A stretch of 64,000 nt of DNA, from the IMG/VR virus record IMGVR_UViG_3300006192_000007, positions 1 to 64,000 of that record; one strand, 5' to 3'. The DNA comes from a virus. Below are positions 18,927 through 48,106 of the stretch, piece after piece. The number at the start of each line of letters is the position of its first letter. Positions within the stretch are counted from its first letter, which is position 1. Below the pieces are notes generated by a model. It was not told the origin of the DNA, did no database searches, and saw nothing but the letters and a program-made list of their open reading frames with translations. The translations under genes and the position numbers were made by a program.

Positions 18927-18956
18927 AAGAATCTAGTAGGATTAAGGAGATTACCC

Positions 18957-23595: not shown

Positions 23596-25473
23596 ATGTT
23601 CGATCCAAATGAAAACAAAGCACCTAAAGCAACTAAAGTTCCAGCAGGCGACAATACTCAAGCAACATCGCAATCAAGCGACTTTTTCTCTGACTATCTA
23701 GCCGGTGCTTCTGACGTAGCATCACGTTCTTCTGAAATCGTAGTTAAGGCAGTTGAGTTCCTAAACAAACGTTCTGAAGACGCTAAGCGTCTAAACGCTG
23801 ACCGTGTAGGTCTACGTTTCACTCACATCGATGACGAAACAGCGCTAGGTCTACCTGTTATCATCGCTTACAACACTAAAGGTCCGGTTAACGGTTTCTT
23901 CACTATCATCGTTGAAGAAGGCGCATACGACGGTAAGTTAAAAGGTCGTGAAGTACATGTACTGAACGAACAGATTGTTATCGACCAATCGACTTCTGAT
24001 TATTGGGATGGTATCTTAGTTACAACTATCGCTAAGCATCTGAAGCAGCTTACTCAAAAAGACTATGCGCACAATAGCTACATGGTTGCACGCGAGTGCA
24101 TGGACTTGTCTAACGAGAAGTACCTAGGTGCACTATACGCGACATCAGAGCGTAACCTAATGTCTCTGTCTGTAGTTAATGTCCCAACAATCGAAAACTT
24201 GAACCAACACGGTCTGTCATTGGAAATAAGCCATGACGTATCACCTGGTGCAACAGTTGAAGATTTAGAAGGTAACCCTGTTTACTGTGACGTTGAATCA
24301 ACCGTAAGTCTAGGTGTGCCACGTGACCGCAACAACAAAAACCGTTCACACAATGCCCGTGAGCGTCGTGCTACTCTTGTAAACGTACGTAGTTACCTAG
24401 ACTTCGTGTTCCAACCAGCAAGTCAAGTCGCTACGTTACCTGGCACTCAAGAAATGATTCGCCCAGCATACCACCCAGTATTGATTCAAGCAGACAGCTC
24501 AGGTATCGATGCTCAAACTGGTAAAGCATTTGAATCACGTGAAACTGCACTGTTCGCATTGCTAGCAATGGCAGAGCTGGCGGCTAACCGTAACTACATC
24601 AACATTCTGCGTCGTAACCACGGCGGTAAACCAGAAATTGGTGTATTAGGCTACCGTTGGGAAGGTCGCTACGGTGTACAAGACTGGGTACCGGCCGAAG
24701 TAGAAATCGATAAAGGTATCGCTACTGGCATGAACTCAGGTCGTCAAACACTGGATGCTTACCTAAAACGTAACGTACACGACACTATTACAGTAGCAGT
24801 CGACGTACTACGCGGTGGTCGTAACGCATGGATCTATGAACCATACGTACAGTCAGTGCTAGCGAACAACCCAAATGACCGTCTAGAAGCGAACACCAAT
24901 ATTGTTCGTATGATTGACGCGTTCACTAAAGGTCACTTCTCTGCACTATGGCCAGAAAACAAACCTATCTTCCAAGAGTCTGTTGTTGCAGTACACTCAG
25001 CAACTTACTTAGACAAAGATGGTCACGTACATGACGTACGTGAATGTGGTACGCTACAGCTACACCAACTTTACAAAGAGCAAACTGATGCACGCATGGC
25101 TGAGTTTGAAAAATCAATGGCACCGGGTGGTTCTAACGGTGATGTTGGTCTAGTCAACATTCACAATCGTCGTCAAGTACTAAAACAAGTACTAGGTGCA
25201 GAAATCAATGGTATGATTGAACGTCTGTTCTACATGCCTGACTTCTTCCCTGTGTTCTTAGAAGCGTGTGGTCGCGCTGGTCTTCGTGTTAGCTCTGAAG
25301 GTCTACACGACACAACTGTAGCTGGTAACATGGGCGTGGATAACTTCCACGCTGGTCAAATGCCTACAATGACAGGTATTTACCAAACCTCTACAGGTGG
25401 TTATGCAAACGGCCAAGGTCAATACATCGGTGGCAACTACAGCTACGGTGCATATGGTGCCTACAACGGTTAA
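23596..25473 (+). CDS. chmA: Probable nucleus-shell protein chimallin
   Basis: Main protein of the proteinaceous nucleus that shields DNA of phiKZ-like phages from host nucleases. 625 residues, close to the about 600-630 of known ChmA. The gene is followed by the nvRNAP beta' N-terminal gene after one exonuclease gene, as gp54-gp55 in phiKZ. It has its own promoter-like element and unusually uniform codons (CGT, GTA, AAC, GGT), as expected for a very abundant protein. The N-terminus is disordered, the middle is folded alpha/beta, and the last about 40 residues are Gly/Tyr/Asn-rich. Assignment rests on length, order and expression signs; a major capsid protein is the main alternative, less likely at this position. 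Confidence 0.72.
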   Translation: MFDPNENKAPKATKVPAGDNTQATSQSSDFFSDYLAGASDVASRSSEIVVKAVEFLNKRSEDAKRLNADRVGLRFTHIDDETALGLPVIIAYNTKGPVNGFFTIIVEEGAYDGKLKGREVHVLNEQIVIDQSTSDYWDGILVTTIAKHLKQLTQKDYAHNSYMVARECMDLSNEKYLGALYATSERNLMSLSVVNVPTIENLNQHGLSLEISHDVSPGATVEDLEGNPVYCDVESTVSLGVPRDRNNKNRSHNARERRATLVNVRSYLDFVFQPASQVATLPGTQEMIRPAYHPVLIQADSSGIDAQTGKAFESRETALFALLAMAELAANRNYINILRRNHGGKPEIGVLGYRWEGRYGVQDWVPAEVEIDKGIATGMNSGRQTLDAYLKRNVHDTITVAVDVLRGGRNAWIYEPYVQSVLANNPNDRLEANTNIVRMIDAFTKGHFSALWPENKPIFQESVVAVHSATYLDKDGHVHDVRECGTLQLHQLYKEQTDARMAEFEKSMAPGGSNGDVGLVNIHNRRQVLKQVLGAEINGMIERLFYMPDFFPVFLEACGRAGLRVSSEGLHDTTVAGNMGVDNFHAGQMPTMTGIYQTSTGGYANGQGQYIGGNYSYGAYGAYNG

Positions 25474-26354: not shown

Positions 26355-27686
26355 ATGATAGGTGCCCGTGTCTTTAACTTCGTTAACTTAGACAATGTTA
26401 TCCAGCGGATGGATAAACCTCCCATTATCATTAACCAGCTTGCGCTCGATACGGAAGAAGACAGAAAACTCTTAGAGTCTTTAACCGTAACACGCTATGA
26501 AGCTACTGACGTGTTTTCTACTGTCCCTATGTGTTCCTGCCGCCGCACTAAGGTCGCTGAAGCCTTAGGGACTATCTGTGAGCACTGTGGTACAGAAGTC
26601 GTGTCTCACCACAACCAAGCCATGGAATCCGAACTGTGGATATCCGTCCCAGACGGGATTGAGTATTTCCTTTCTCCTCTGCCATGGATATTCTTAAATC
26701 AACGCCTCTCTGCTCGAGGCTTTAACGGCTTACAATGGGCCATGGATTCTAAAATCCCAGACCCAGAAGAGTCTAACAAGAAAGCCTCTTCTATTGTTAA
26801 CCGCTTTAAACAAGCGGGTTTTGTTCGTGGGTTATCTCACCTCAAAGACCAATTCGACACTATAGTCGATGTTGCTATTAGAGAAACCCAATCGGCTCAA
26901 AAGCGAGTTGAGTTACTAAACTTCATTGACTACTACAAGGATGCCCTGTTTGTCAAACACATCCCTATTCCGTCTAAGGTCGCGTTTACCATAGAGAATA
27001 CCGCCTATGGTAACTATTTCGACCGTACAATGACTTCCGCAATAGAAGCCATCTTCTCAGCAGCAGGTACGTCCTCTATGCGTAACATCAAACGCTTAGA
27101 GTCACGCTTTACCTCTATCTTAGTTAACCTAACGGCTTACTATGAAGACGTGGTTACCAATAACCTGTCATCTAAGTCAGGATGGCTGCGCCGAGTAAAC
27201 TACGGCACTCGTATGAACTATTCCTTCCGGAATATCATTACGTCCTACCATGGTCTACATGAGGTCGATACGATATTGGTTCCGTACCATCAGCTATTAA
27301 CGGTGTTAGAACCTTTAGTCGTGGCTCACCTCATCCGTGAGTATAACCATACCCACAGTCAGGCTCAAGCCTATGTAATCCAACACGCTACCGATAAAGA
27401 CCCACTGTTGTGGGAAATATTGGAAATGTTCATTGACGAAACGCCACCTGTGCCTGTATCGGAAACAGCGCACGTAGTGACGCTAGATAAGGGAGGAAGA
27501 CCGGTACTCACGGATTTACCGTGTACACTTACTACACGTAAGGTTAGAACCGGTGGAGGTATACGCTGTGCCCTTACGCGCTATCCCTCATTATCCCGTT
27601 CTAGCACGCAGGGCGTTAGGATAGTTGGATTAAGTGACTGCGAGATAAGGATTTCAGTCCTTGCTCTACGTGGTCCAAACGCCGAC
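26355..27686 (+). CDS. nvRNAP beta' N-terminal subunit, exon 1
   Basis: Part of the phage's multisubunit RNA polymerase; by position next to chmA it corresponds to phiKZ gp55 of the non-virion enzyme. 444 codons. A zinc-binding N-terminal region has CSCRRTKV and ICEHCGTE (about 56-80). The end RYPSLSRSSTQGVRIVGL ... RGPNAD matches the universal beta' run-up to NADFDGD. Without splicing, translation would stop after NADKLKYSLLH. Joined to 29062, the product reads NADFDGDQM and has 507 residues. AAGGAG precedes the ATG. Confidence 0.88.
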
Positions 27687-29061
27687 AAACTAAAGTACAG
27701 TTTGCTCCATTAAGGAGAAACTCGTGGAAATTAAACTACACGGAGACACTTTCAGAAAATCTTTAGAACATCCTTCTATTGTCGTTTCTCGGACCGGCAA
27801 ACTCTTTAATCTAAAAGAAAACGCTTACATTGAAATCAATCCTCCTAAAGAAGATTGGTACTTGACGTTTACTTCTCCTGACACAGGCAAGACATCATTA
27901 CTCCATCGCTTAGTTGGGGAATGCTGGGTGTCTAACCCTAGCCCGGAAACGTTCACCCTGATTAACCATAAGAACGGTAATAAACATGACCCGCACTTTG
28001 GAAATCTAGAGTGGACCGACCATAGTGGTAATATACGTCACGCCTATGAACATGGTCTACGTACCGAAATGCAGACACTCGAAGTTTTCGATAAAGTAAC
28101 ACAGAAATGGTTTAAATCTAAAGGTCTAAATAAGACCGCGGCCTTAATCGACCTATCTCCGGCGCAACTGTCTTATCACCTTAAGGCAAAGGGCTGGTTT
28201 GAAAATGCCAATTTCATCACTCAGCTTTCTAACCTGGAAAGCCGTAAGGTGGCTGACCGTACTTTGTTTCCAGTAGGTGTTTTCGCCAAAGATATCGAAA
28301 CAGGGAAGGTCGTTATAGCTGAAAACATTTCGCGCCTATCTAAAACCATAGGGGTTCCGAAGTCCAATATAAGACGTTGCATAGTGAAGGGAAAAGAATA
28401 CCCCTCCAATGGCTACTTGTTTAGTTTGGACGGTGAGTTCCCAGAGACATGGAAAGATAACCATCGGACTAAAAAAGCCGTGGTCTACTTACATGAAGAC
28501 GGGCGTAGAGTAATTGCCGTTTCGGATAGAGAAGCACAGAAACTGACAGGTATTAATGCTAAGCGTATAGTTAGAATGAAGAAAGAAGGTTCATCCTTTA
28601 AAGGTTGGAAAGTGCAAACTGGATAAGTCCGCCTCTATGGTGACATACAGGTGAGAATACGTGAATTGCTGGTAAAGTCTAAAGCCTAACACCAAAACGG
28701 ATAGCGAAAGCTAAAACGGTAACGGTGACGAAAGTCAGAAAAGACGTTAGGATGACCTATGGTGAGAGCCTAAGGGTTTTGACAATGGACAGCTCAGCAG
28801 CCAAGCGCCTACGGATTGTTGTGATAACAAGCTATGGTGAAGGTTCAACGACTATTACTGGGTACGGCACCCGATGTAGGAGAGCAAGCGCCTCCGAAGT
28901 GCGTATATCTGGAGTTGACTGAAGAAGTCTTATTCTCCAGAACTGATATAGTCTCGGCGTATCGCAAGATACCTGCTAGCCTGTGATGGTTAGTCGTCCG
29001 GTGAAACCCCGGAGCAGCATTAAGTTGCGGGTAAGGGATAGCATCCTTACTGAAGATAACG
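27687..29061 (+). other. Group I intron in the beta' active-site motif
   Basis: The junction is set by the protein: 27686 to 29062 restores NAD|FDGDQM in frame. The catalytic core lies after the intron's own gene: P-like AATTGCTGG (28664-28672), R element TTCAACGACTA (28844-28854) and S element GATATAGTC (28945-28953), whose GACTA and TAGTC pair as P7. The intron ends in G as group I introns do. The upstream exon ends in C rather than the usual U. GTCCGC just after the endonuclease stop could form an imperfect P1 with the exon end. Confidence 0.88.
27724..28626 (+). CDS. Intron-encoded HNH homing endonuclease
   Basis: 300 residues. GTG start after AAGGAGAAACTC, placed in the P1 loop of the intron. 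The HNH module has LLHRLVGECWV ... LINHKNGNKHDPHFGNLEWTDHSGN (about 59-100), the N-x-K-N-G-x-x-x-D-x-x-x-x-N-L-x-W form. Two helix-turn-helix repeats of NUMOD1 type follow (SRLSKTIGVPKSNIRR and REAQKLTGINAKRIVR) and would recognise the intronless site. It presumably cuts intronless beta' genes at the FDGD codons. Confidence 0.88.
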   Translation: MEIKLHGDTFRKSLEHPSIVVSRTGKLFNLKENAYIEINPPKEDWYLTFTSPDTGKTSLLHRLVGECWVSNPSPETFTLINHKNGNKHDPHFGNLEWTDHSGNIRHAYEHGLRTEMQTLEVFDKVTQKWFKSKGLNKTAALIDLSPAQLSYHLKAKGWFENANFITQLSNLESRKVADRTLFPVGVFAKDIETGKVVIAENISRLSKTIGVPKSNIRRCIVKGKEYPSNGYLFSLDGEFPETWKDNHRTKKAVVYLHEDGRRVIAVSDREAQKLTGINAKRIVRMKKEGSSFKGWKVQTG

Positions 29062-29253
29062 TTCGACGGTGACCAAATGACAGGGTCTATTGCTTTAGAT
29101 GAATACATGGCTGAACGCATGAGTTTACTCGCGCCTCACTATGACGTTTATTCTACGGCATACCCTTTAACATTAAAGCATAACATCGGTTTACCGTCTG
29201 TTACTGTTACAAACAAAGCAGAATGGATGGCATCCGAAGTTATGGTTATTTAA
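29062..29253 (+). CDS. nvRNAP beta' N-terminal subunit, exon 2
   Basis: 63 codons plus stop. It begins FDGDQMTGSIALDEYMAERM, which supplies the second and third aspartates of the metal-binding NADFDGD motif, and ends with TNKAEWMASEVMVI. It has no start of its own and is read only after intron removal. Confidence 0.87.
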   Translation, partial: FDGDQMTGSIALDEYMAERMSLLAPHYDVYSTAYPLTLKHNIGLPSVTVTNKAEWMASEVMVI

Positions 29254-29328
29254 ATTAGAAAAAAAGAATAGTCTGCAGGTAGTGACTACTACCTGCGGTT
29301 GTTCTATCTATAAAGAGAAGTGTATAGG

Positions 29329-29859
29329 ATGATAGTAACTAAACTCAAGTTTTATTACGGAGCGTGTACAGGTTTCTTCCATCGGAACATGCGCAAGATC
29401 ATTCCTAAATGGAATCAAGCTGCAATCGATAAGGCATCAGAATGGCCTGGTATTACCCTTATTCCGCTTGTGGCTGAACGAATAGGTATTGTATCTGGAT
29501 GCCCATTACCGGGATACGTAATGATGCTGCAACCTATTCGGGACTATGACCTTTTGCTCCAAGAACAATGGAAGGTCAATAACATCTGTCTAGACGAGTG
29601 GGTCTATTCGTCCGCCTGGCTAACAATGGTACAGTCTAAAACTATCACTGAAGATTCCTACTTTAGATATCTAAAGTACTTCCATGACCTAGACGTACAG
29701 TGGAAAGCGGGTACGTTAAAAGGAATGCCTACTTTAAGCCAAAATGTCTATAACGATTATGGAGCCGACGAGATGGCTTTAGTCATTGATATAAAGAATG
29801 CTTTATTCGAGATATTCAATAGTAAAGCCCTCACCGATAAACCCTACGTGATGTTATAA
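29329..29859 (+). CDS. Hypothetical protein
   Basis: 176 residues from the ATG at 29329; an in-frame GTG at 29320 is possible. Helical, rich in Trp and Tyr (YLKYFHDLDVQWKAGTLKG), with a Gly/Pro loop in the middle. No recognised domain. First of a run of small genes after the RNA polymerase gene. Confidence 0.6.
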   Translation: MIVTKLKFYYGACTGFFHRNMRKIIPKWNQAAIDKASEWPGITLIPLVAERIGIVSGCPLPGYVMMLQPIRDYDLLLQEQWKVNNICLDEWVYSSAWLTMVQSKTITEDSYFRYLKYFHDLDVQWKAGTLKGMPTLSQNVYNDYGADEMALVIDIKNALFEIFNSKALTDKPYVML

Positions 29860-31652: not shown

Positions 31653-31680
31653 AAGAAAGGGCGTTTGTCCTTTCTTTTTT
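31653..31680 (+). terminator. Rho-independent terminator
   Basis: Stem AGAAAGG with CCTTTCT, then TTTTTT. Confidence 0.75.
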
Positions 31681-31702
31681 GTCAACTATAGGAACCACCA
31701 TC

Positions 31703-32116
31703 ATGCCCGTACCTGCAATAGGCACTCTATCGTCAGACGGTTACGTTACTGACCCTAAAAAACAACTTTCGTATATGTTTGCCCACATATTCGAAACCCG
31801 TCATAATGACACCATCCTTTTCACAGGACAACTTACTTCGATTCAGTTACTGACCGCTAAGTACGCTAAAGACAGTGCGGTGTTTCGTACCGAACTTACG
31901 GCAGCATTAACAAAATACTTTTCTCGTGTCTTTGATAGTGCTAAAGTTATCGTTACCACTGAAGATATCGATGAGTCTAGCTACATGGCTTCTATAGACG
32001 TCAAGGTGACGCGTAATGGCGAACTTTATAGCTTAGGTGCTGAGCTGTCTATAGACCCCTTAAAATCCATTACACGCCTGATTAAGGAGATTAACCAGTC
32101 AATAACCTCCCCCTAA
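31703..32116 (+). CDS. Hypothetical protein with 3' end remade by IscB element
   Basis: 137 residues from the ATG at 31703 (TAGGAA upstream). Alpha/beta, unrecognised. The last four codons and the TAA stop lie within the conserved left end of the omega-RNA element, so the original C-terminus has been replaced or slightly changed. The 16 bases just before the element are the likely guide source for the first IscB. Confidence 0.6.
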   Translation: MPVPAIGTLSSDGYVTDPKKQLSYMFAHIFETRHNDTILFTGQLTSIQLLTAKYAKDSAVFRTELTAALTKYFSRVFDSAKVIVTTEDIDESSYMASIDVKVTRNGELYSLGAELSIDPLKSITRLIKEINQSITSP

Positions 32117-32344
32117 AGGGGTAGGCTTGTAAAAGCCTAATTGACCAGCCTTAGTTCTTAACAGAACTACGTTATCTTAGTTATCATACCCTGGGGTGGC
32201 CGGTCCAGCCCCAGGCTCTATGCAGGCTCTGTAAACAGTTCTAGAGGTAAGAACCGTCAACCTGGTGAGCCGATTACGGTAAGCTTTGATAACATTGGCG
32301 AGGACCACTTAACTGCTTAAATGCACGTAAACAGGAACGATATT
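32087..32344 (+). ncRNA. Omega-RNA of IscB copy 1 with 16-nt candidate guide
   Basis: The scaffold 32103-32344 runs to the iscB start and has the same length (242 nt) as copy 2. Stems: 32123-32127/32134-32138, 32153-32158/32163-32168, 32190-32196/32209-32215. In copy 2 these stems have different bases but still pair. Unpaired blocks such as CTATGCAGGCTCTGTAAACA and GCCGATTACGGTAAGCTTTG are conserved. The inferred guide GAGATTAACCAGTCAA (32087-32102) is the 3' end of the upstream gene, as IscB guides lie 5' of the scaffold. Confidence 0.82.
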
Positions 32345-33802
32345 ATGTCTAATTCCGTATTCGTCTTAAATGACGATAAAACGCCCTTAATGCCGTGTAA
32401 GCCGGCTAGGGCGAGATTATTATTAAAACAAGGTAGGGCGGCTGTGTTTAGAACCCATCCCTTTACTATCATTCTAAAAGAACAGATAGAGAACCCTGTA
32501 CTGGAAACGATAAGGGTAAAGGTAGACCCCGGTAGTAAAACCACCGGGATAGCCTTAACAGTTCACTATAAAAGAGGAGTAAAGTGCATCTGGGGAGCCA
32601 ACCTAGAACACCGAGGTCATGCTATAAAAGATGCATTACTATCTAGAGCACAGTGTCGTAGAGGGAGGCGTGGCCGAAAGTTACGCCACCGTAAACCTAG
32701 ATTCTTAAATCGGTTTAAACCTGAGGGATGGCTTGCACCAAGCATTATGTCTAGAGTAGATAATACACTAACTTGGGTAAATCGCTTGATGCGGTACTGT
32801 CCTGTGGGACAGGCCTCTGTAGAACTTGTTAAGTTTGATATGCAGAAGATGGAAAATCCTGAGGTTACAGGTAAAGGATACCAACAAGGTACTTTACACA
32901 ACTATGAAGTTAAAGAATACTTACTGTATCGCTATAACCATACTTGTCAGTATTGCAAAGGCGTCAGTAAAGACCATATTCTAGAGATAGAGCACATTGT
33001 ACCTAAATCTAAAGGAGGCACGAATAGTATTGGTAATCTAACTTTAGCCTGTTCGAGCTGTAACCGACATAAGAATAACCATACTTTGAAAGACTGGTTA
33101 GAAATAAACCGTGGTCTAAAAACACCTCTGGCTAAAGCCAGGGTACGTAACATCCCTAGTGTGATATCAAGACGTAAACCTACGCTTAGAGACGCTGCCG
33201 CTGTCAATGCGACGAGACATAGGCTAGTAGAAGAGCTAGGGTTTTTAGGACTACCGACGGAGTCGGAGGGAGGGCATGTTACGAAGTATAACCGCCGCCG
33301 GCAAGGCTATCCGAAGGACCACTGGATAGATGCTGCGCTAGTAGGTGATACGGGCAGTAACGTGCACATACCGAAATCTACGCATCCGTTACTTATTAAA
33401 AAGACTAAAGTTAATAACCGTCAAATGACTAGGCCGGATAAGTATGGTTTTCCTAGAACTAAACCTAAAGGCCCGTCTAAAGCCTTCGGGTTTAAAACAG
33501 GTGATGTGGCTAAGCATGGTAGGCTTATTGGCCGCGTAGCGATAAGAACATGCGGTTACTTTAACTTTTTAGGTAAAGGCTGCAGTTACCGGCACTTAAA
33601 ACGTATCCAGTCAGTAGATGGTTACCAGTACACCGACGGTAAGTTAACAAGTCTAATAACAGAAACCGACTACTTGCCATGGTTTACTTATGTACATTCC
33701 GTTACTAAAATAGATGGTAGTGCTAAAAAGATAACTGGCAAGCTTAATAAGGAGGGAAAGAGATTTTTATGTACACCAAAAAATACATCAGGCACGTCCT
33801 GA
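32345..33802 (+). CDS. iscB: IscB RNA-guided nuclease, copy 1
   Basis: 485 residues. Ancestor-type relative of Cas9 that nicks or cuts DNA with RuvC and HNH domains. The N-terminal PLMP domain has VLNDDKTPLMPCKPARARLL (7-26). RuvC-I is KVDPGSKTTG with D61; the Arg-rich bridge helix is about 105-123; RuvC-II has E160 in VELVKFD; HNH is CQYC (201-204), EHIVP with H217, and CSSCN (237-240); RuvC-III is HWIDAALVG with H326 and D329. The C-terminal region would read the target-adjacent motif. The ATG at 32345 is preceded by AACAGGAACG. All catalytic residues are present. No TnpA is nearby. Confidence 0.93.
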   Translation: MSNSVFVLNDDKTPLMPCKPARARLLLKQGRAAVFRTHPFTIILKEQIENPVLETIRVKVDPGSKTTGIALTVHYKRGVKCIWGANLEHRGHAIKDALLSRAQCRRGRRGRKLRHRKPRFLNRFKPEGWLAPSIMSRVDNTLTWVNRLMRYCPVGQASVELVKFDMQKMENPEVTGKGYQQGTLHNYEVKEYLLYRYNHTCQYCKGVSKDHILEIEHIVPKSKGGTNSIGNLTLACSSCNRHKNNHTLKDWLEINRGLKTPLAKARVRNIPSVISRRKPTLRDAAAVNATRHRLVEELGFLGLPTESEGGHVTKYNRRRQGYPKDHWIDAALVGDTGSNVHIPKSTHPLLIKKTKVNNRQMTRPDKYGFPRTKPKGPSKAFGFKTGDVAKHGRLIGRVAIRTCGYFNFLGKGCSYRHLKRIQSVDGYQYTDGKLTSLITETDYLPWFTYVHSVTKIDGSAKKITGKLNKEGKRFLCTPKNTSGTS

Positions 33803-33838
33803 TTCCTCAGGGGACTAAAGTCCCCGGTATTCTCAGGA
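33797..33838 (+). terminator. Hairpin at right end of IscB element 1
   Basis: GGGGACTAAAGTCCCC with flanking TCCTGA and TCAGGA arms, directly after the iscB stop and before the next ribosome site. It may be the element's right-end structure. Confidence 0.55.
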
Positions 33839-33847
33839 GAAAATAAA

Positions 33848-34324
33848 ATGAGTGGTTTTATAGTCCCAGAAAACGTTTTTCCTTCTATTAAGGAAAGTTT
33901 GTTCCGTGACCGTTATTTGCCTGCCTTCATTAATAACGATAAAGAGCTTTGCTTAGAGTGGGTAGAGCGCATCTCTATCTCTCCCTTTGCAAAAGTACGT
34001 GTAGTCGATGATTCGGATATGGATAAGATTCTATTTGAAGTCCCGCCACTAGTACGTGGTCCAGAGACTCAGATAGGCGGAAACTTCAATGCCGTAATGC
34101 AAACCGCTAGCCGTATTGCAGAAAACTACAACAGTAAAGTGACTGAGCGCTATATCCGTGATACGTTAAATGGGCGCTTTGTCTGTGAAACCGAATCCGA
34201 CGCTGACATGGAAGCGTGGATTGACATTGCAATTCGTTATGGATATAGTCGTCCAGATACACCACAATCTACTGCCTCAGGAAACAATAATGGATTGGTT
34301 AACGAAGAAGAAGACTGGGATTAA
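33848..34324 (+). CDS. Hypothetical protein
   Basis: 158 residues, start after TCAGGAGAAAATAAA. Helical, acidic C-terminus (NEEEDWD). Overlaps the nuclease gene that follows by 35 bases, suggesting coupled translation. Not recognised. Confidence 0.62.
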   Translation: MSGFIVPENVFPSIKESLFRDRYLPAFINNDKELCLEWVERISISPFAKVRVVDDSDMDKILFEVPPLVRGPETQIGGNFNAVMQTASRIAENYNSKVTERYIRDTLNGRFVCETESDADMEAWIDIAIRYGYSRPDTPQSTASGNNNGLVNEEEDWD

Positions 34325-35462
34325 CATCCTTTACTTTTCCGATGTACATATGCTTCATCCCCGTGTACGCAGTCGAGATATTGCTGACCGATTACAAAAG
34401 CTAATCCTTAATGTTATCAAACACCATGTGTTAGACTATATCATCATTGCTGGGGACTTTTATGATGAAAGTGGCTATTTACCCGATGAAGATGTATTTG
34501 TAGTAGAAGAGTTTATACGTGTGCTGATTCATCTATGTGCACATAATCATATCAAGCTTCGGATACTAGAAGGTACCCCGTCCCACGATAGAAAGCAATC
34601 TCGCCACTTCGTTAAGGTAAATAATTTCCTTAGTGGAAAAGAAAAGGCCGACTTAAAATACATCGAGACATTGGACATTGTTAAGGAAGAAGATGGTTCG
34701 ACATGGCTTTATGTCCCAGATGAATGGCATCATGACCCAGATGTTGTCTGGAAGCAGGTACGGGATAGGCTGAATCAGGAAGGTTTAACTCAGGTAGACT
34801 TTTCCGTAACACACGGGATGTATAAGCACCATGTACCACATGGACTGGATTTAAAAGCCCATGACCCTGACCGGTATCTGGATATCACCCGTTACTATGT
34901 AGACAATGGGCATATCCATACAAAGTCTGTCTACAAAGACAGGTTCATTACCAATGGGTCACCTGACCGTTTGGCTATGGGGGAAGAGGAAAGTAAAGGG
35001 ATATGGATGGCTCATGTAAGTAGTCACTCACGTATGGAAGACAAATTGTTTTTCTTTGAAAATAAAGAAGCCACGTATATGGTAACTTTAGACATTAAAG
35101 AACATACCTTTGAGAGAAGTAAAGAAGTCATCGAGTCCCATTGCCATCCTACAGAAAGACGCTTTATTCGTCTGGAAATCTCAGAAGAGCTTTATAGTCA
35201 AGGACTGATGAGTTATTTCCAAGACTTATACCCTAATATAGTCTGGACAAAAAAGGTCACTCGCAATGACAATATGCAAGTCTCTTTTTTAGAGGCATTA
35301 AATGCTAAAGTGCACAATAGACCTATTAATGCCAACACAATCGAAGACCTTTTCTTAGAAGAAGCACGTCTTCGTAATGTAGACGAGAATGAGGTTATAG
35401 ATGCCTTAGCTTTTTTGAAATCCCAACCCTTTTATGTCAGTAACCTCCCCCTAAAGGGGTAG
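34290..35462 (+). CDS. SbcD-like metallophosphoesterase nuclease
   Basis: 390 residues from the ATG at 34290 (TCAGGAAAC upstream). Calcineurin-type motifs in order: FSDVHMLHPR (D and H), IIAGDFYDE (G-D), EGTPSHDR (replacing G-N-H-D), SVTHGMY (H), and DNGHIHT (G-H-x-H). This is the Mre11/SbcD nuclease layout, with a C-terminal capping region. It would process DNA ends in replication or recombination. Its last four codons and TAG stop are provided by the second IscB element. Confidence 0.83.
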   Translation: MDWLTKKKTGINILYFSDVHMLHPRVRSRDIADRLQKLILNVIKHHVLDYIIIAGDFYDESGYLPDEDVFVVEEFIRVLIHLCAHNHIKLRILEGTPSHDRKQSRHFVKVNNFLSGKEKADLKYIETLDIVKEEDGSTWLYVPDEWHHDPDVVWKQVRDRLNQEGLTQVDFSVTHGMYKHHVPHGLDLKAHDPDRYLDITRYYVDNGHIHTKSVYKDRFITNGSPDRLAMGEEESKGIWMAHVSSHSRMEDKLFFFENKEATYMVTLDIKEHTFERSKEVIESHCHPTERRFIRLEISEELYSQGLMSYFQDLYPNIVWTKKVTRNDNMQVSFLEALNAKVHNRPINANTIEDLFLEEARLRNVDENEVIDALAFLKSQPFYVSNLPLKG

Positions 35463-35682
35463 GCATGTAAGTGCCTAACTGACCAGCCTTAGTCCCGTTA
35501 GGGACTACGTTATCTTAGTTATCATACCCCGGTGTGGCCGGTCCAGCACCGGGCGCTATGCAGGCTCTGTAAACATACCTAGAGGTAGGGTAAGTCAACC
35601 TGGAGAGCCGATTACGGTAAGCTTTGATAACATTGACGAGGACCACGTAACTGCCCTACGGGCACGTAAAGGGAACGATATT
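35425..35682 (+). ncRNA. Omega-RNA of IscB copy 2 with 16-nt candidate guide
   Basis: The scaffold 35441-35682 is 242 nt, equal to copy 1. Pairing is kept with changed bases: AGGCA/TGCCT (35461-35465/35472-35476), AGTCCC/GGGACT (35491-35496/35501-35506) and CCCGGTG/CACCGGG (35528-35534/35547-35553). The inferred guide AACCCTTTTATGTCAG (35425-35440) is the 3' end of the SbcD-like gene and differs from that of copy 1. Confidence 0.82.
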
Positions 35683-37155
35683 ATGTCTAATTCCGTATTC
35701 GTCTTAAATGACGATAAAACGCCATTAATGCCGTGTAAACCGGCACGGGCGAGATTATTATTAAAACAAGGTAGGGCAGCAGTTTTCAGAAAGCAGCCCT
35801 TTACTATCATTATGAAAGAACAGATAGAAAACCCTGTTCTTGAGAACATTGAGGTAAAGATAGACCCCGGTAGTAAAACCACCGGGATAGCGCTAGTAAT
35901 GAATACTAAACGTGGAGCTAGATGTATCTGGGGTGCCAACCTTAAGCACCGAGGTCAGCAGATACGTGATGCCTTATTGTCCCGCGCTCAAACGCGACGG
36001 GGGCGACGCAGTCGTAAACTGCGCTACCGTAAGCCTCGATTTTTAAACCGAGTTAAATCTAAAGGGTGGTTGGCGCCCAGTATTTACACTCGAGTAGATA
36101 ATACCCTCACTTGGGTTAACCGTCTTATGCGCTATTCGCCAGTGACGTCGGCAGTGGTTGAACTCGTTAAGTTTGATATGCAAAAGATGGAAAACCCGGA
36201 GATTGCAGGTAAGGCGTATCAGCGAGGAAGTCTCTTTAACTATGAAGTTAAAGAGTATTTACTGTATCGATATAACCACACCTGTCAGTATTGTTCTGGT
36301 GCATCTAAAGACCCCATTTTGGAGATTGAACATATTGTTCCTAGAGCATCAGGTGGTAGCAATCGACTGAGTAACCTGACACTCTCCTGTGCGACATGTA
36401 ACCGAGAGAAAGGGAAACTGTCTTTGGCTGACTGGAAGGATAAATGTACCCACCGAAAAAACCCTATTGACATGAAGCGATTAAAAGGTATTGTTCGAGT
36501 GGGACAGAACATTAAGCCCGCACTGAAAGATGCGGCTGCCGTGAACGCTACTCGATATCGTCTAGTAGCTGAGCTGGACTATCTGGGACTACATACGGAA
36601 ACCTCAGGAGGACACATTACCAAATATAATCGTAAGCAACAGGGTTATCCGAAGGACCATTGGATAGATGCTGCTTTAGTCGGAGAAAGGGGTTCTCACG
36701 TTCATATCCCTCCGGAGTTACATCCTTTAATCATTAAAAAGGTAAAAGTTAATAACCGCCAGATGACAAAGCCTGACAAATATGGCTTCCCTCGAACGAA
36801 AGCTAAAGGTCCTTCCCGAGCTTTCGGTTTTAAGACAGGAGATATCGCGGCTTCCCCGTTTGGCGTGGGGAGGGTGGTCATCCGGACCTCGGGTACTTTT
36901 AACGTATTAGGAAGAGATGTTAGCTGGAAGCGTTTAGTCCATCTCTCCTTTACTGACGGTTACGAATATGTGGACCAACGCATCGTCAAGATGATTGTTG
37001 ATAAGCATACTGTAATTAAAGAGGTGTTTGAGAGAGTCATATCAAAAACATTAATTGACGCCGATTCCCTTCTCATAGAAGGTACATTGAATCGTAAAGT
37101 AGTTCATGGTATCCGTAGGGACAGTAAAACTAGAGACCATACTAAACTATATTAA
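35683..37155 (+). CDS. iscB: IscB RNA-guided nuclease, copy 2
   Basis: 490 residues, close to copy 1 over the PLMP, RuvC and HNH parts and more different in the C-terminal target-recognition region. The PLMP domain is kept; RuvC-I D61 in KIDPGSKTTG; E160 in VELVKFD; HNH with EHIVP and CQYC/CATC pairs; RuvC-III HWIDAALVG. It has about 60 extra residues of different sequence at the C-terminus compared with copy 1. The start follows AAAGGGAACG. The next phage gene starts 16 bases after its stop. Confidence 0.93.
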   Translation: MSNSVFVLNDDKTPLMPCKPARARLLLKQGRAAVFRKQPFTIIMKEQIENPVLENIEVKIDPGSKTTGIALVMNTKRGARCIWGANLKHRGQQIRDALLSRAQTRRGRRSRKLRYRKPRFLNRVKSKGWLAPSIYTRVDNTLTWVNRLMRYSPVTSAVVELVKFDMQKMENPEIAGKAYQRGSLFNYEVKEYLLYRYNHTCQYCSGASKDPILEIEHIVPRASGGSNRLSNLTLSCATCNREKGKLSLADWKDKCTHRKNPIDMKRLKGIVRVGQNIKPALKDAAAVNATRYRLVAELDYLGLHTETSGGHITKYNRKQQGYPKDHWIDAALVGERGSHVHIPPELHPLIIKKVKVNNRQMTKPDKYGFPRTKAKGPSRAFGFKTGDIAASPFGVGRVVIRTSGTFNVLGRDVSWKRLVHLSFTDGYEYVDQRIVKMIVDKHTVIKEVFERVISKTLIDADSLLIEGTLNRKVVHGIRRDSKTRDHTKLY

Positions 37156-37171
37156 TCATAAGGAGTAAACG

Positions 37172-37948
37172 ATGACTCCACGTACCGTAGGAGAAAAGTT
37201 AGCGTTTTCAGTAGGGACAGCTATCCCTTTAGAGGAACACGTTGTTTCAGATGGGTATAAAGCCGACGCTATTCTGTTAAACGTGAAAACGTTATTTAGA
37301 AACTTCTGGGGGGCGTGGCCAAATACCGACCGTCCTCCAGTACAGCAAATGTTTGAGCTTTTTGTAGAAGAAGTTAGAGACATTATGGCACTGTGTCAAA
37401 CGATGGGAATAACACCTGTCCTATATCACTTGACTTATGCCTCACTGAGCAATCGTTATCCGAATGCTACGTTAGTAGTTCCTAAGACCGATAACCAGAA
37501 GGCCTATGCCAGCGCCGAAGCAGCTATGATGAAGGTAGCCATTAGTCAGTTCCCAGAAATGGTAAAGAGCGATTTAACATTACCGTCTTTTAACGGAAAC
37601 GTTTATCTGTTAAGTTCATACCCAGTAGACTTACTTAATGCGCATCGCTATGTATCGTTAAAGTTACTCGAGAGCCATACGGGGAATGTGAAAGGACGCG
37701 CTGAGTGGTTTAGTAAACTCAGTAACGCTCCTGAACTACAACACCTTCCATTTAACCATTTCATGTTACAGGTATTTGGTGACCGGGCTACTCAGTTTGT
37801 AGGCCAATCCCAGAAGATAAAGAAAGCCGTCATTAAACTAGCACTTTCTCGTAACTGGAATCAGTCTACTACCCTTACCCGTATACGTGAAAATCTCACA
37901 TCGATTGAAGACAGTGACTTGCGCAAACAGTGCCTGTCATTTGTCTAA
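37172..37948 (+). CDS. Hypothetical conserved-looking protein
   Basis: 258 residues, start after TAAGGAGTAAACG. Mostly helical with a mid region VYLLSSYPVDLLNAHRYVSLKLLESHTG that looks like a folded alpha/beta core. No motif recognised. It leads an operon with the gene at 37969, both downstream of the second IscB. Confidence 0.62.
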   Translation: MTPRTVGEKLAFSVGTAIPLEEHVVSDGYKADAILLNVKTLFRNFWGAWPNTDRPPVQQMFELFVEEVRDIMALCQTMGITPVLYHLTYASLSNRYPNATLVVPKTDNQKAYASAEAAMMKVAISQFPEMVKSDLTLPSFNGNVYLLSSYPVDLLNAHRYVSLKLLESHTGNVKGRAEWFSKLSNAPELQHLPFNHFMLQVFGDRATQFVGQSQKIKKAVIKLALSRNWNQSTTLTRIRENLTSIEDSDLRKQCLSFV

Positions 37949-44068: not shown

Positions 44069-44136
44069 CTTTTATGAATGCGTTGATAGTAACGCATGGT
44101 GTTCTAAAAGATTCACAACAGCACAAGGAGAAACCA

Positions 44137-45336
44137 GTGGGAACCATCGAAAAGTTACTCAATCGTTCTGAGTTAACAGGTACAACCGATCTTATTACCC
44201 CATATGGAAGTCCAGACTCCAGCCCGCGTTTACACATGGTCGCCGCCCAGTCCCAACAGGCAATGCAGCCATTACGCCCAGATATCCCTATCTCTTTGAC
44301 AGGTTACGAAGTACAGATGTCTAAGACGACAATGGCCATCACGATGCCCTGTGACGCTATTATCGAGGACATCATCTCGCATCACGTATCCGCCGTTATG
44401 TCACAGCGTGACACGGTAACCAAAACGATAGTCTATCAAGACGTAGATACGGGTGAGTATGGGAGTATTGAGCTAGAAGGGTATTTCCGAGCACACGACG
44501 TGTTTGGGGCACGTTTAAACCTAACCCCAGAAGGTCAGCGTCTGCGCCCTGGCATGCAGGTCAAAAAGGATACAATTCTCGCTCACTCAAATGGCGCTAA
44601 TGTTGGTGGTGTGTATACTACGTCATTAACCACTGAAGTGGCTAACCTATCATTAAACGGCGTTATAGAAGACGGACTGATTGTTTCTGAAGAGTTCCTG
44701 AAAAGAGCTGCGCCTGTGGCGATGGCATCGCGTGATATTGAAACCGGAAAAGAGCGTTATTTCGTTGGAGTATATAGCGAAGGTGGCGTATTCCGTGCCT
44801 TTCCCGGACCAGGCGAAAAGATACGTGACGACAACTTAGTTTTCGCTACGCGTAACTATGACCCATTGTTAGACTGTGTCTATATGCTAGAAGACATGGT
44901 TGATACTGTGGACTTTGCCTATGACGAATGCGTCTTTGCACCACCAGAGTGTGAAAATGCTAAAGTGGTAGATGTTACTGTATATAGCTCACCTTCAACC
45001 TCGCGCTTACGTCAGACTCCACCTACCATGGAAGAGTCCTTAAACGTTTACCGTGAACAGAAAGGACACTACTGTAATAAACTGGTTGATATCTACCGTC
45101 GGCTAAGAAAGCAAGAAGGGAATCGCTTAAAGCTATCACCGAAGCTAGAAGAGCTACTTACCTATGCGCTGGCAGATAAGCCGAATGACCAACCTCGTTC
45201 AAACAACTATTCTGGTGCAGGTACGGTTCAGTACACCTATAAGGCTAAGCAGATTGATGAGTGGTACGTATCAATTGAATTAGCCTGGATGTACGATTTA
45301 AGCTACGGTGCAAAATTCGCGGACTTACACGGATGT
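44137..45336 (+). CDS. nvRNAP beta C-terminal subunit, exon 1
   Basis: 400 codons from a GTG at 44137 with AAGGAG. Corresponds by motif and order to phiKZ gp71-73, itself known as an intron-split gene. It ends YGAKFADLHGC, which aligns with the universal beta sequence GDKMAGRHGN; the Lys of GAK corresponds to the first conserved active-site lysine. Without splicing, translation stops after CFSIRTDFN. The spliced protein would be 693 residues. Confidence 0.88.
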
Positions 45337-47224
45337 TTCTCTATAAGGACTGATTTTAATTAGTAACAAATGTACCAATAGTATGTATTTAAATTTTAAT
45401 AGTGCGAGAATACAACTATGTTTTGGTACATTCCAGGAACAAACGATTGGGCGATTGATGAAGAACATATTCTTCGTAGTCCAGAAGGAAAACTCATCCG
45501 GCCGAGTGTTAACCAAAGGGTTAGATTAACCCTGTACGGTAAACCAACGGCTACTTCATTGAAGCGTCTATTCCTTTTAGCGCATCATGACATGTTTTTA
45601 CCAGATAGAAGTCTAGAGGGGCTCCAAAACGTTAAGTTTGTCCCTCAAGAGAAATCTGGCTTTACTGAAAGTAGTGGGTTCATGCCTATCTTCAAGGAAC
45701 CCATTCACATTAATAAGGATTTTCGCGTATGTCCACTATGCCCAAGTCTGGCCGTAAATAAGGAGGGTACTAAAATTTATTGCTGGAGGACTGATAAGTA
45801 TCTAAATGTTTATAGTCTCGCCGGTTACCGATACCTTACTCACTACGGCCGAAATTACAGGGTTCATAGATTAGTAGCATCGGCATGGGTAGAAAATCCA
45901 AATCCTCGGACTAAACCGGTTGTTAATCACATTGACCACAATAGAGATAACCCGCATTATCTTAACTTAGAATGGTGTACCCAGCAAGAAAATGCCGAGG
46001 CTATGGTGGAATATGGAAACAGCGCTACAGCCATCGAGTGTAAAGTTAGAGACTTTGTAACGGGCGTGGTAACTATTTATCCTAGTGTCAATGCCGTCGC
46101 TAAGGCGTTAGGTTTAAAACCACCAATACATTTAAGTACTTTAATGTCTACCAACCCTTATCGTCTTTATATGGACCGCTACGAAATAAAGCCACTGATG
46201 GATCAGACCCCATGGAAAAAGATATCTCCAGGAGAATCCAGGAAGTCCCAGTACACATTTGCAGTCTACGAGTCACCTGGTAATGCCTTGATTTATCATG
46301 ATCGTATGCAGGTACAGAAAAACTATAAGATATGGAACGTTCCTAACATCGAGCGCCTAATCGATAAGTTTTCTGAACTCCATCCTGACAAACGTATCTA
46401 TTATTGCAAAAACTATATACATGAGACTATACAGTCGATGCGTATAGGCACATGGGAAATTAAGGAGTGGGCTTCAATACGAGAAGCCTCTAGAAAACTT
46501 AATGTCAGTTTTTCGGCCATACATGGAGTTATCCGTGATAACGCTTCTTCTAGAGAAGTTAAAGGTTACCTCTTTAGAACAACATCCTCGTTGCCGTGGG
46601 AACGCAATGTAGATGCATTTAAAAGTAAAAAAATGAGTTTAAAAGCAGTGCACGAAAAGGACGGAAGTACAATCAACTTTGTATCTCTGCGTGCCGCCGC
46701 CACCCACTTTAACTGTGATAGAAGCACCGTTAAAAGATGGATACGTAAAAAAATTGTTTTGTTCGGTTACTTTTTAAACAAAAGTTAATAGCATCCCTTA
46801 GCCAGTAATGGCTTTGAACAAACTCCTCTAATTGCGGGAAGTTCTTGGTGAAACTTACTACCAACTTAATGCGGAAACGTAATTAAGGGCGCAGCTAATC
46901 ACTGCGGTATGGTAAAAAGGTAAGTGGAAAGAAAATCGACGCAGCGAAGTTCCTAAGTCTATTAACAGATATGGAATGAGTTCAACGACTATCGAAAGGA
47001 TAGCCATAGTGGTGACATTATGGTGAATAACTGAGTAGAGTACAGCCACAGGCTTATGGTGGCCCTGGAGAACAGGATAGCGCACATGCGTAATGGAAAC
47101 GGGGAGCCCCTACCTCATCTTTATAAAGATGTCGAGGGTGATGATATAGTCTGCCCCTTATGGCGACATAAGGCGGGTGTCTGAGCACACCGGGTCAACA
47201 ATTGCACGTTGATTGGACAAAGGG
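45337..47224 (+). other. Group I intron in the beta HG-x-KG motif
   Basis: Junction 45336|47225 yields HGC|KGVVCEI, equal in length to the consensus HGNKGVV. The exon ends in U and the intron in G. Exon end GGATGT pairs with GCATCC (46791-46796) to form P1 with the U-G wobble at the splice site, so the endonuclease gene sits in the P1 loop. Core: P-like AATTGCGGG (46830-46838), R element TTCAACGACTA (46981-46991), S element GATATAGTC (47143-47151). Confidence 0.92.
45418..46788 (+). CDS. Intron-encoded HNH homing endonuclease
   Basis: 456 residues, in the P1 loop of the intron. HNH module about 155-200: VHRLVASAWVENPNP ... VVNHIDHNRDNPHYLNLEWCTQQEN, with the N-H-x-D-x-x-x-x-N and N-L-E-W-C pattern. 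The N-terminal 140 residues include a degenerate first module (HILRSPEGKLIRPSVNQR, like NUMOD4). Two helix-turn-helix modules at the end (IREASRKLNVSFSAIHGVI and RAAATHFNCDRSTVKRWIR) are NUMOD1-like and should bind the intronless site. Confidence 0.88.
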   Translation: MFWYIPGTNDWAIDEEHILRSPEGKLIRPSVNQRVRLTLYGKPTATSLKRLFLLAHHDMFLPDRSLEGLQNVKFVPQEKSGFTESSGFMPIFKEPIHINKDFRVCPLCPSLAVNKEGTKIYCWRTDKYLNVYSLAGYRYLTHYGRNYRVHRLVASAWVENPNPRTKPVVNHIDHNRDNPHYLNLEWCTQQENAEAMVEYGNSATAIECKVRDFVTGVVTIYPSVNAVAKALGLKPPIHLSTLMSTNPYRLYMDRYEIKPLMDQTPWKKISPGESRKSQYTFAVYESPGNALIYHDRMQVQKNYKIWNVPNIERLIDKFSELHPDKRIYYCKNYIHETIQSMRIGTWEIKEWASIREASRKLNVSFSAIHGVIRDNASSREVKGYLFRTTSSLPWERNVDAFKSKKMSLKAVHEKDGSTINFVSLRAAATHFNCDRSTVKRWIRKKIVLFGYFLNKS

Positions 47225-48106
47225 AAAGGCGTAGTCTGTGAAATTCGTCCACGTAGCCAAATGCCACGTGATGACTTCGGCAATATTGCCGATGTAGTAC
47301 AATCAGGAATCTCTGTCTTTGCCCGTATGAATATCGGGCAAGAATATGAGCGTTACATTAATGCCGCATGTCGAGACGTGTCTAAAGATATGCGTAGAAT
47401 GAATGCAGAAGGAGAATGGCTAGAAGCATTTAACCATGGTATGGGACTAATCCGTATTGTCTCACCGGAACAATACGAGCACTATCTTAAGGTTAAAAAT
47501 ACTGACCTTAAGAAACGTGAATGGGTAGACAGTGTTGCTGAAGATATACTGCGTCTATTAGTGCGTCCGGATTCCGGAATACTAAGCAAAGAGCTTATCA
47601 CTGCGATTCGAGAATATCGTCGTCCCGATAAGTCACCTATTACTTATTATAACTATGACGGTAATCTTATCCGCACTGAAAAGACGGCTTTAATCGGTCC
47701 TAAACAAATGATTGTCTTAGATAAGTCATCGTTTAAACCAATGGCGGTAGCCGTATCCCGACGTCAACAACATGGTTTACCAGCGACCACCAACAAACGC
47801 ACCAAGGTTGCCTTCCCGACTAACCGACAGCCGCCGAGAAGTTGGGGTGAAACCGAAAACCGAAATCTGTGTGCCGCAATGGGAGGTGAAGCCGTATTGT
47901 ACCAAACAGACCAATCCACTAACCCAGACGCAACGCGCAATGCATTAGAGAGCATGTTACGTAAACCTAAGCCATTTAAAACCTTTAAGCACTTAGACCG
48001 CACTAAGGTACCTGAAGGTGGGTCACGCACGATTCAGTTCGTTAAGAACTTATTAGGCGCGATGGCGATTAAATTTACCACACTGATACCAAAAGGAAAT
48101 CGATGA
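47225..48106 (+). CDS. nvRNAP beta C-terminal subunit, exon 2
   Basis: 293 codons plus stop, reading KGVVCEIRPRSQMPRDDFGN after splicing. The first Lys corresponds to the second conserved active-site lysine of beta. The stop overlaps the next start (ATGA), giving coupled translation of beta and beta'. An in-frame TTG at 47213 lies in the intron and is not a plausible separate start. Confidence 0.87.
   Translation, partial: KGVVCEIRPRSQMPRDDFGNIADVVQSGISVFARMNIGQEYERYINAACRDVSKDMRRMNAEGEWLEAFNHGMGLIRIVSPEQYEHYLKVKNTDLKKREWVDSVAEDILRLLVRPDSGILSKELITAIREYRRPDKSPITYYNYDGNLIRTEKTALIGPKQMIVLDKSSFKPMAVAVSRRQQHGLPATTNKRTKVAFPTNRQPPRSWGETENRNLCAAMGGEAVLYQTDQSTNPDATRNALESMLRKPKPFKTFKHLDRTKVPEGGSRTIQFVKNLLGAMAIKFTTLIPKGNR

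What the first reader, a model, noticed from the sequence alone, without database searches (positions are those of the whole stretch)
32087..37155. Two complete IscB/omega-RNA loci in a jumbo phage
Seen: two IscB proteins with intact PLMP, RuvC and HNH residues, each directly downstream of a 242-nt structured leader, 3.3 kb apart, no TnpA. Known: IscB is an omega-RNA-guided nuclease of IS200/IS605-type elements and the ancestor type of Cas9. Inference: here they act as RNA-guided homing elements or as weapons against co-infecting phages.
Basis: partly seen in the sequence, partly recalled or inferred. Interest (0 to 1): 0.9.

Follow-up and report, generated by a model that had tools for sequence, protein, structure and literature searches.

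The report
Paired RNA-guided nucleases in giant phage
A nucleus-forming giant bacterial virus carries two intact Cas9-ancestor (IscB) genes, each with its own guide RNA and each sitting exactly between two neighbouring genes, which suggests self-spreading DNA that could cut rival viruses lacking it.

Summary
Two IscB genes lie at 32345-33802 and 35683-37155, each right behind an omega-RNA (Rfam HEARO; 139 and 117 bits). RuvC and HNH residues are conserved and no TnpA was found. The two omega-RNAs differ by eight fully compensatory base-pair changes (null mean 0.44; 0 of 20,000 simulations reached eight), so both RNAs stayed under structural selection. The phage encodes a nuclear-shell protein and multisubunit RNA polymerases, so it is a chimallivirus-type jumbo phage, known here only from fragments. 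Each element sits at a gene junction, immediately before an ATGA start codon. The uninserted junctions survive in Vibrio phage XC31, which has no IscB. Across 58 related IscB loci, element homology stops at a shared ATGA in 41 of 81 pairs (0-4 at displaced positions), and natural guides are enriched for Shine-Dalgarno motifs. Best reading: RNA-guided homing elements whose target-adjacent motif (TAM) is the start codon ATGA. Damage to co-infecting relatives is plausible but untested. Site 2 is less clean: rejoining it fuses the flanking genes, and its 3' hairpin is missing. IscB in phages is already known. I found no report of it in nucleus-forming phages among the papers listed, and a second, apparently independent case exists.

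The parts
32082..32097 (+). Guide 1 (16 nt 5' of the omega-RNA scaffold): Shine-Dalgarno and last codons of the upstream gene
   Evidence: 16 nt before scaffold start; best ATGA-adjacent match in the 25 kb XC31 locus is the syntenic junction, 13 of 16; one other place ties at 13 without ATGA
32098..32344 (+). omega-RNA 1 (HEARO scaffold 32098-32313) and leader up to IscB-1
   Evidence: RF02033 139.1 bits; guide-adaptor hairpin z -3.43
32345..33802 (+). IscB-1, 485 aa
   Evidence: Pfam RRXRR + HNH; catalytic residues; AF2 model pLDDT 84.9, best PDB match an IscB (8csz) E 4.3e-26
33797..33838 (+). 3'-end imperfect palindrome of element 1
   Evidence: RNA fold of 33790-33847, -19.9 kcal/mol, z -2.95
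33848..33851 (+). Predicted TAM ATGA = start codon of the downstream gene, site 1
35420..35435 (+). Guide 2 (end of the SbcD-like gene)
   Evidence: 16 nt before scaffold start
35436..35682 (+). omega-RNA 2 (HEARO scaffold 35436-35651) and leader up to IscB-2
   Evidence: RF02033 117.2 bits; hairpin z -3.76; 8 compensatory pairs against copy 1
35683..37155 (+). IscB-2, 490 aa, 67% identical to IscB-1
   Evidence: Pfam RRXRR + HNH; catalytic residues
37172..37175 (+). Predicted TAM ATGA = start codon of the downstream gene, site 2 (3' boundary less certain)
   Evidence: no 3' hairpin
31679..32116 (+). Gene upstream of element 1; its last 5 codons and stop are read from the omega-RNA
   Evidence: homolog in XC31 46.9%, which ends where the element begins
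33848..34324 (+). Gene downstream of element 1; an AGGAG Shine-Dalgarno lies in the element's 3' end
   Evidence: XC31 homolog overlaps the upstream gene
34293..35462 (+). SbcD-like nuclease gene upstream of element 2; its last 8 codons and stop are read from the omega-RNA
   Evidence: phrog_100 E 3.9e-39; XC31 homolog
37172..37948 (+). Gene downstream of element 2
   Evidence: XC31 homolog overlaps the sbcD stop codon
23596..25473 (+). Nuclear shell protein (chimallin), context
   Evidence: phrog_4795 E 1.4e-35

Best explanation
Each element is a functional IscB/omega-RNA homing element. Shown: an omega-RNA directly upstream of an IscB with conserved catalytic residues, placed between two neighbouring genes just before an ATGA start codon, at junctions that are uninterrupted in a related phage. 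Inferred: the 16 nt before the scaffold (end of the upstream gene; at site 1 with its Shine-Dalgarno) are the guide, and ATGA, the next gene's start codon, is the target-adjacent motif. In a co-infecting relative without the element, guide target and ATGA are contiguous, so IscB cuts there; repair from the element-bearing genome copies the element in. After insertion the guide target is followed by GTCA, which does not fit NNRR, so the element's own genome is not cut. Stop codons in all three frames at the start of both scaffolds and a Shine-Dalgarno before each downstream start keep the flanking genes translatable. Cutting rivals that cannot repair would also give the carrier a competitive edge, as shown for the intron endonuclease gp210 of phage PhiPA3.
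For: Rfam and Pfam hits. Catalytic residues and IscB fold. Eight compensatory pair changes between the omega-RNA copies, null mean 0.44, 0 of 20,000. IscB Ka/Ks about 0.11, dS near saturation. Uninserted syntenic junctions in XC31; no IscB-1 match in XC31, BONAISHI or Ea35-70. Rejoined site 1 restores the stop/start overlap ATGA, as in XC31. Family-wide boundary at ATGA in 41 of 81 pairs from 58 loci, displaced controls 0-4 of 81. Shine-Dalgarno in 28 of 92 guides (this phage's guide 1 is one of them) vs 58 of 651 control 16-mers, p 9.8e-8. OgeuIscB TAM is NNRR and its guide about 17 nt (PMC9640706, passages); ATGA fits. A second chimallivirus-type phage carries an IscB followed by an ATGA start. 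Precedent for competition: PMC11620839 (abstract and one section).
Against: No expression or cleavage data. No natural uninserted allele with a perfect guide match: of 26 pattern loci from viral contigs none has convincing homologs of the flanking genes. Guide 1 has 3 mismatches to XC31, one next to the TAM, and a second place in the same 25 kb ties at 13 of 16; guide 2 has no syntenic match among its best hits. In more distant phages the junctions differ: BONAISHI has ATGA at junction 2 but ATGG at junction 1, Ea35-70 ATGG at both. Rejoined site 2 would fuse SbcD in frame with the next gene unless one T is extra. Element 2 lacks the 3' hairpin. 40 of 81 pairs show no shared ATGA at the homology end. 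Only 42 of 74 related scaffolds close all three frames within 60 nt.
Confidence: 0.7

Rival explanations
1. Transposon passengers: the elements are ISC-type insertions moved by a TnpA supplied in trans (host or co-resident element). IscB mainly restores the element at its old site after excision; spread between phages is rare.
For: Ends shared with relatives: GTCA hairpin at the 5' end in 97 of 164 loci, ATGA at the 3' boundary; element 1 keeps a 3' palindrome. Relatives occur widely in bacterial genomes (393 found, 80 kept).
Against: No Y1 transposase match in this phage's records; element 2 has no 3' palindrome, yet its omega-RNA and IscB remain under selection.
Confidence: 0.15
2. Domesticated weapon: IscB has been kept for phage benefit, to exclude related superinfecting phages, and no longer spreads.
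For: Element 2 looks immobile by transposition (no 3' palindrome); purifying selection on both; long C-terminal tails (59 and 64 residues after a conserved Gly; 2 of 117 other loci with the motif have tails of 45 or more, and these two are near-identical). Precedent gp210 (PMC11620839).
Against: The guide is dictated by the insertion site, which is the anatomy of homing; selection on a nuclease is also expected from homing. No perfect target in a named phage was found (only XC31's 25 kb locus was searched guide by guide).
Confidence: 0.12
3. Recently dead mobile elements, ORFs still open by chance.
For: Fragmentary record, no expression data; element 2 shows no 3' hairpin.
Against: Compensatory RNA changes, low Ka/Ks at high divergence, conserved catalytic residues.
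Confidence: 0.03

Closest known systems
IscB/omega-RNA (HEARO, RF02033; OgeuIscB)
   Same: Protein domains, omega-RNA upstream on the same strand, guide at its 5' end, TAM class (ATGA fits NNRR; PMC9640706, passages)
   Different: Sits in a nucleus-forming phage, two diverged copies at neighbouring gene junctions, no TnpA found, long C-terminal tails
PhiPA3 gp210 intron-encoded HNH homing endonuclease (PMC11620839; abstract and one section)
   Same: Nuclease inside an insertion that a related co-infecting phage lacks; targets the uninserted site
   Different: gp210 is an HNH endonuclease in an intron in a polymerase gene, not RNA-guided; IscB is RNA-guided and lies between genes
TnpB as gene drive of insertion sequences (PMC11870625; passages)
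   Same: Guide records the insertion site; element-free copies are cut
   Different: TnpB (Cas12 ancestor) of IS200/605 on plasmids
Free-standing phage homing endonucleases such as T4 SegF (recalled; only a reference title seen)
   Same: Intronless homing, marker exclusion
   Different: Not RNA-guided (recalled)

Membership tests
IscB | PLMP motif, RuvC-I/II/III with D, E, H, D and an Arg-rich bridge helix | tested here: met
   RRXRR 238.9 and 241 bits
IscB | HNH domain with catalytic His inserted in RuvC | tested here: met
   HNH PF01844 E 8.1e-13 and 6e-12; H217 invariant in 51 rows
IscB | WED/TAM-interacting C-terminal part | tested here: inconclusive
   Foldseek aligns 525 columns to 8csz with TMq 0.60, rmsd 7.8; domain not examined residue by residue
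IscB | omega-RNA (HEARO) directly upstream, same strand | tested here: met
   RF02033 139.1 and 117.2 bits; covariation
IscB | RNA-guided, TAM-dependent DNA cleavage | not testable with these tools
   TAM ATGA inferred from boundaries only
IS200/IS605-type (ISC) transposon | TnpA Y1 transposase | tested here: not met
   PF01797, 0 of 4 records at E <= 0.1; records are fragments
IS200/IS605-type (ISC) transposon | Palindromic ends | tested here: inconclusive
   5' hairpins in both copies, 3' hairpin in copy 1 only
Homing element | Interrupts a site that is intact in relatives, with its target split by the insertion | tested here: met
   site 1 clear against XC31; site 2 with a one-base problem; more distant phages differ at the junctions
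Homing element | Biased inheritance in co-infection | not testable with these tools
   needs phages
Chimalliviridae | Nuclear shell protein | tested here: met
   phrog_4795 E 1.4e-35; control genomes 0 of 14
Chimalliviridae | Multisubunit phage RNA polymerases | tested here: met
   phrog_3015, 2962, 2987, 3295
Chimalliviridae | PhuZ tubulin | tested here: inconclusive
   ORF 14166-15167, Tubulin PF00091 E 4.7e-6 but 27.5 bits, below the cut-off of 33
Jumbo phage | Genome over 200 kb | not testable with these tools
   only records of 101 and 105 kb held

The most novel reading that the evidence does not exclude
Nucleus-forming phages carry RNA-guided homing islands that reprogram themselves by where they land. 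Because the TAM is ATGA, the element slots into coupled gene junctions without breaking either gene, and the guide taken from that junction makes IscB a weapon that must enter a rival's phage nucleus; the unusual C-terminal tails of these two proteins might serve that entry. Such islands would be RNA-programmed interference and speciation factors.
Probability: 0.25. Interest if true: 0.85.

Novelty: new member of a known kind. Interest (0 to 1): 0.6.

Why it matters
A protein-guided homing nuclease is already known to act as a weapon between nucleus-forming phages. Finding the RNA-guided ancestor type of Cas9 in the same niche, with guides that can be read from the sequence, makes the rival's cut site predictable. 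It offers a direct test of whether RNA-guided nucleases served competition between mobile elements outside CRISPR. The ATGA rule would also explain how such elements can enter dense phage operons harmlessly.

Tried and rejected
Uninserted alleles: patterns of rejoined site 1 (25 loci) and site 2 (1 locus) in viral contigs; none of the 26 has convincing homologs of the flanking genes (best a 49-residue SbcD-like piece in L193, E 1.1e-4), so the pattern matches are probably ordinary ribosome-binding sites.

Close relatives of two flanking genes in viral contigs: only the second record of the same phage was found.

Self-targeting: the one-mismatch copy of guide 1 at 18942 is one base out of phase with its ATGA; rejected. 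Only the 64 kb window was searched, not the rest of the record.

Equivalence with PhiPA3 gp210's site: the intron at 46707-47173 lies in a gene whose match in PhiPA3 is gp065, annotated 'similar to gp071', so it is not the gp178-type gene that gp210 targets; rejected.

Unusual tails as a phage-nucleus signal: kept as speculation only. The other chimallivirus-type IscB (L069) has a tail of 7 residues, and the first tail comparison used rows pre-selected for length, so I recounted without that filter: 2 of 117. L069's IscB has an N-terminal extension instead if its ORF starts at 2723.

L214 as an uninserted site for L069: the upstream gene was not found there, so it says nothing.

Promoter scan: 18 found against 14.1 expected, uninformative. 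Terminator-like hairpins: 15 against 6.1 (sd 2.3), one of them inside omega-RNA 2; not followed.

HEARO integrating at ATGA/GTGA: I recall this from Weinberg et al. 2009, but that paper and the ISC transposon paper are not held; one search for HEARO with ATGA (20 of 83 papers listed) showed no paper with both words. If the recall is right, the ATGA boundary is a confirmation, not a discovery.
Full report
Observation. The window holds two copies of one module: omega-RNA, then IscB, same strand, 3338 nt apart. Rfam's HEARO family matches 32098-32313 (139.1 bits) and 35436-35651 (117.2 bits) against a gathering score of 83. IscB-1 and IscB-2 carry Pfam RRXRR and HNH domains. The copies are 67% identical in protein and at 217 of 247 nt from scaffold start to IscB start. 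RuvC D61, E160, D329 and HNH H217 are invariant, and RuvC H326 nearly so, in a 51-row alignment; their equation with OgeuIscB's D61, E193, H340, D343 and H247 (listed in PMC9640706, passages) is by motif order. An AlphaFold2 model of IscB-1 (mean pLDDT 84.9, tail under 50) has IscB structures as its best PDB matches.

Both RNAs are under selection. Of 67 pairs of the Rfam structure mapped on both copies, 48 are unchanged and paired, 8 changed on both sides and still pair, 1 changed on one side and still pairs, 1 is broken in copy 2, 6 are unpaired in both and 3 have gaps. Random placement of the 29 substitutions gives 0.44 such double changes on average and never 8 in 20,000 trials. Ka/Ks between the IscB genes is about 0.11, but dS is near saturation, so this is indicative only.

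The phage. The record is a 101 kb virus record; a second record of 105 kb shares the region with 2 differences in 13,290 bases. It encodes a nuclear shell protein (23596-25473), terminase and several multisubunit RNA polymerase subunits, and a weak tubulin match. Relatives of the genes around the elements lie in phages that I place, by recall of their names, in the phiKZ group; nearest are Vibrio phages Yong XC31/XC32/MS31/MS32 of 278-291 kb. It is therefore a chimallivirus-type jumbo phage; its full size is not known.

Where the elements sit. XC31 has the same gene order without IscB. There the gene pair at site 1 overlaps at ATGA (AACCGATGACAG) and the pair at site 2 at TAATG (GCATAATGATAG). 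In two more distant phages the junctions differ: BONAISHI has ATGG at junction 1 and ATGA at junction 2, Ea35-70 has ATGG at both. In the window the scaffold starts with GTCA just behind the end of the region shared with XC31, and both downstream genes start with ATGA. Rejoining the flanks at site 1 gives GATTAACCA|ATGAGTGG, which restores the stop/start overlap of XC31. At site 2 rejoining gives TTTTAT|ATGACTCC, which would fuse SbcD in frame with the next gene; only without the T at 35435 does it give the TAATG overlap of XC31. Either that T belongs to the element or the boundary has changed; element 2 also lacks the 3' palindrome that element 1 has.

Is ATGA general? I took 164 related loci from phages, viral contigs and bacterial genomes; they include the second record of this phage (L021) and some duplicate records. 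In 81 pairs from 58 loci (pairs at 99.9% identity or more dropped), homology ends at least 10 nt past the IscB stop codon. In 41 of these 81, covering 32 loci, a shared ATGA lies at the end; the next 4-mers mostly overlap it (TATG 26, TTAT 18, TGAA 15). Displacing the ends by 20-100 nt gives 0-4 of 81. Guides, taken as the 16 nt before the scaffold where its hairpin was found (97 of 164 loci; 92 distinct guides), contain a Shine-Dalgarno motif in 28 of 92 cases against 58 of 651 control 16-mers further upstream (p 9.8e-8; only exact duplicates were removed, so relatedness inflates this). The family thus tends to insert just before ATGA start codons. This fits the NNRR TAM of OgeuIscB (PMC9640706, passages). 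In the window's two copies all three frames close within 27 nt of the scaffold start, and a Shine-Dalgarno (AGGAG, AAGGAG) lies just before the downstream ATG, so both neighbours stay translatable; among relatives 42 of 74 scaffolds close all frames within 60 nt.

Second case. I checked 48 of the 80 viral IscB loci kept, plus the window's record, for the nuclear shell family: 3 of 49 records match, namely both records of this phage and a 244,725 bp record, which also has the phage RNA polymerase (20 records searched). Its IscB is 41-44% identical and falls elsewhere in a quick tree of 119 IscB proteins (bacterial rows thinned by half), though on a long branch. It has a HEARO at 202735-202937 whose scaffold does not begin with GTCA, and the next ORF behind IscB starts with ATGA; its 3' boundary is not shown by homology. 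That next gene has relatives in 258 phage records. This points to repeated acquisition by such phages.

Mechanism. The anatomy is that of homing: a nuclease whose guide is the flank of its own insertion site, so that only uninserted alleles are targets. Direct evidence of cutting is missing. Guide 1's match to XC31's syntenic junction is 13 of 16 with a TAM-adjacent mismatch, and one other place in that 25 kb ties at 13 (followed by TAAG, not ATGA); OgeuIscB does not tolerate TAM-proximal mismatches (PMC9640706, passages), so XC31 itself may be resistant. Guide 2's best hits there are not at the syntenic place. The weapon reading rests on analogy with gp210 of PhiPA3, which nicks the PhiKZ gp178 gene and lowers PhiKZ titre (PMC11620839: abstract and one section).

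Literature. [quoted passage not shown] In the named-phage collection 73 records match IscB-1, each best place under 60% identity, 9 over at least 80% of its length. Two jumbo-phage reviews (PMC12908238, PMC13282480) and one comparative study (PMC7824862) do not contain the word IscB (term searches). My searches show no paper describing IscB in a nucleus-forming phage among the rows listed; the lists are capped and most subscription papers are not held.

Verdict. Observation confirmed, interpretation partly supported: a known kind of RNA-guided system in a new and well-suited setting, with a readable guide and an inferred TAM.

Noticed in passing
44074-48106: An RNA polymerase beta-type gene (phrog_3295) is split by a group I intron (Rfam 46707-47173) with an HNH endonuclease ORF (45418-46788).
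   Followed up: partly
26355-29859: A second RNA polymerase beta-type gene (phrog_2987) is followed by an HNH endonuclease ORF (27724-28626) and a group I intron (28585-28974); 29320-29859 may be its last exon (not tested).
   Followed up: partly
57583-58770: ORF with DUF723 and a weak treble-clef zinc finger match below its cut-off; possibly a further homing-type nuclease (recalled association, not tested).
   Followed up: no
33623-33799 and 36961-37152: Both IscB proteins have long C-terminal tails (59 and 64 residues after a conserved Gly), low-confidence in the IscB-1 model and 28% identical over the last 50 aligned residues; 2 of 117 other loci have tails of 45 or more.
   Followed up: partly
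L022 and L023 (IMG/VR 3300018411_000019 and 3300018405_000014): The nearest other IscB (53%) lies in large viral contigs with similar sample numbers, in which the nuclear shell and phage RNA polymerase families were not found.
   Followed up: partly
L048:2114-4490: Two HEARO matches flank one IscB in a viral contig, perhaps tandem elements.
   Followed up: no
L018 (Nodularia phage kac68v162): An IscB-like HNH gene lies among genes annotated as an IS607 family transposase and two transposases.
   Followed up: no
L019 (LR756508, 484 kb uncultured phage): An IscB with HEARO (144.4 bits) in a very large phage genome.
   Followed up: no
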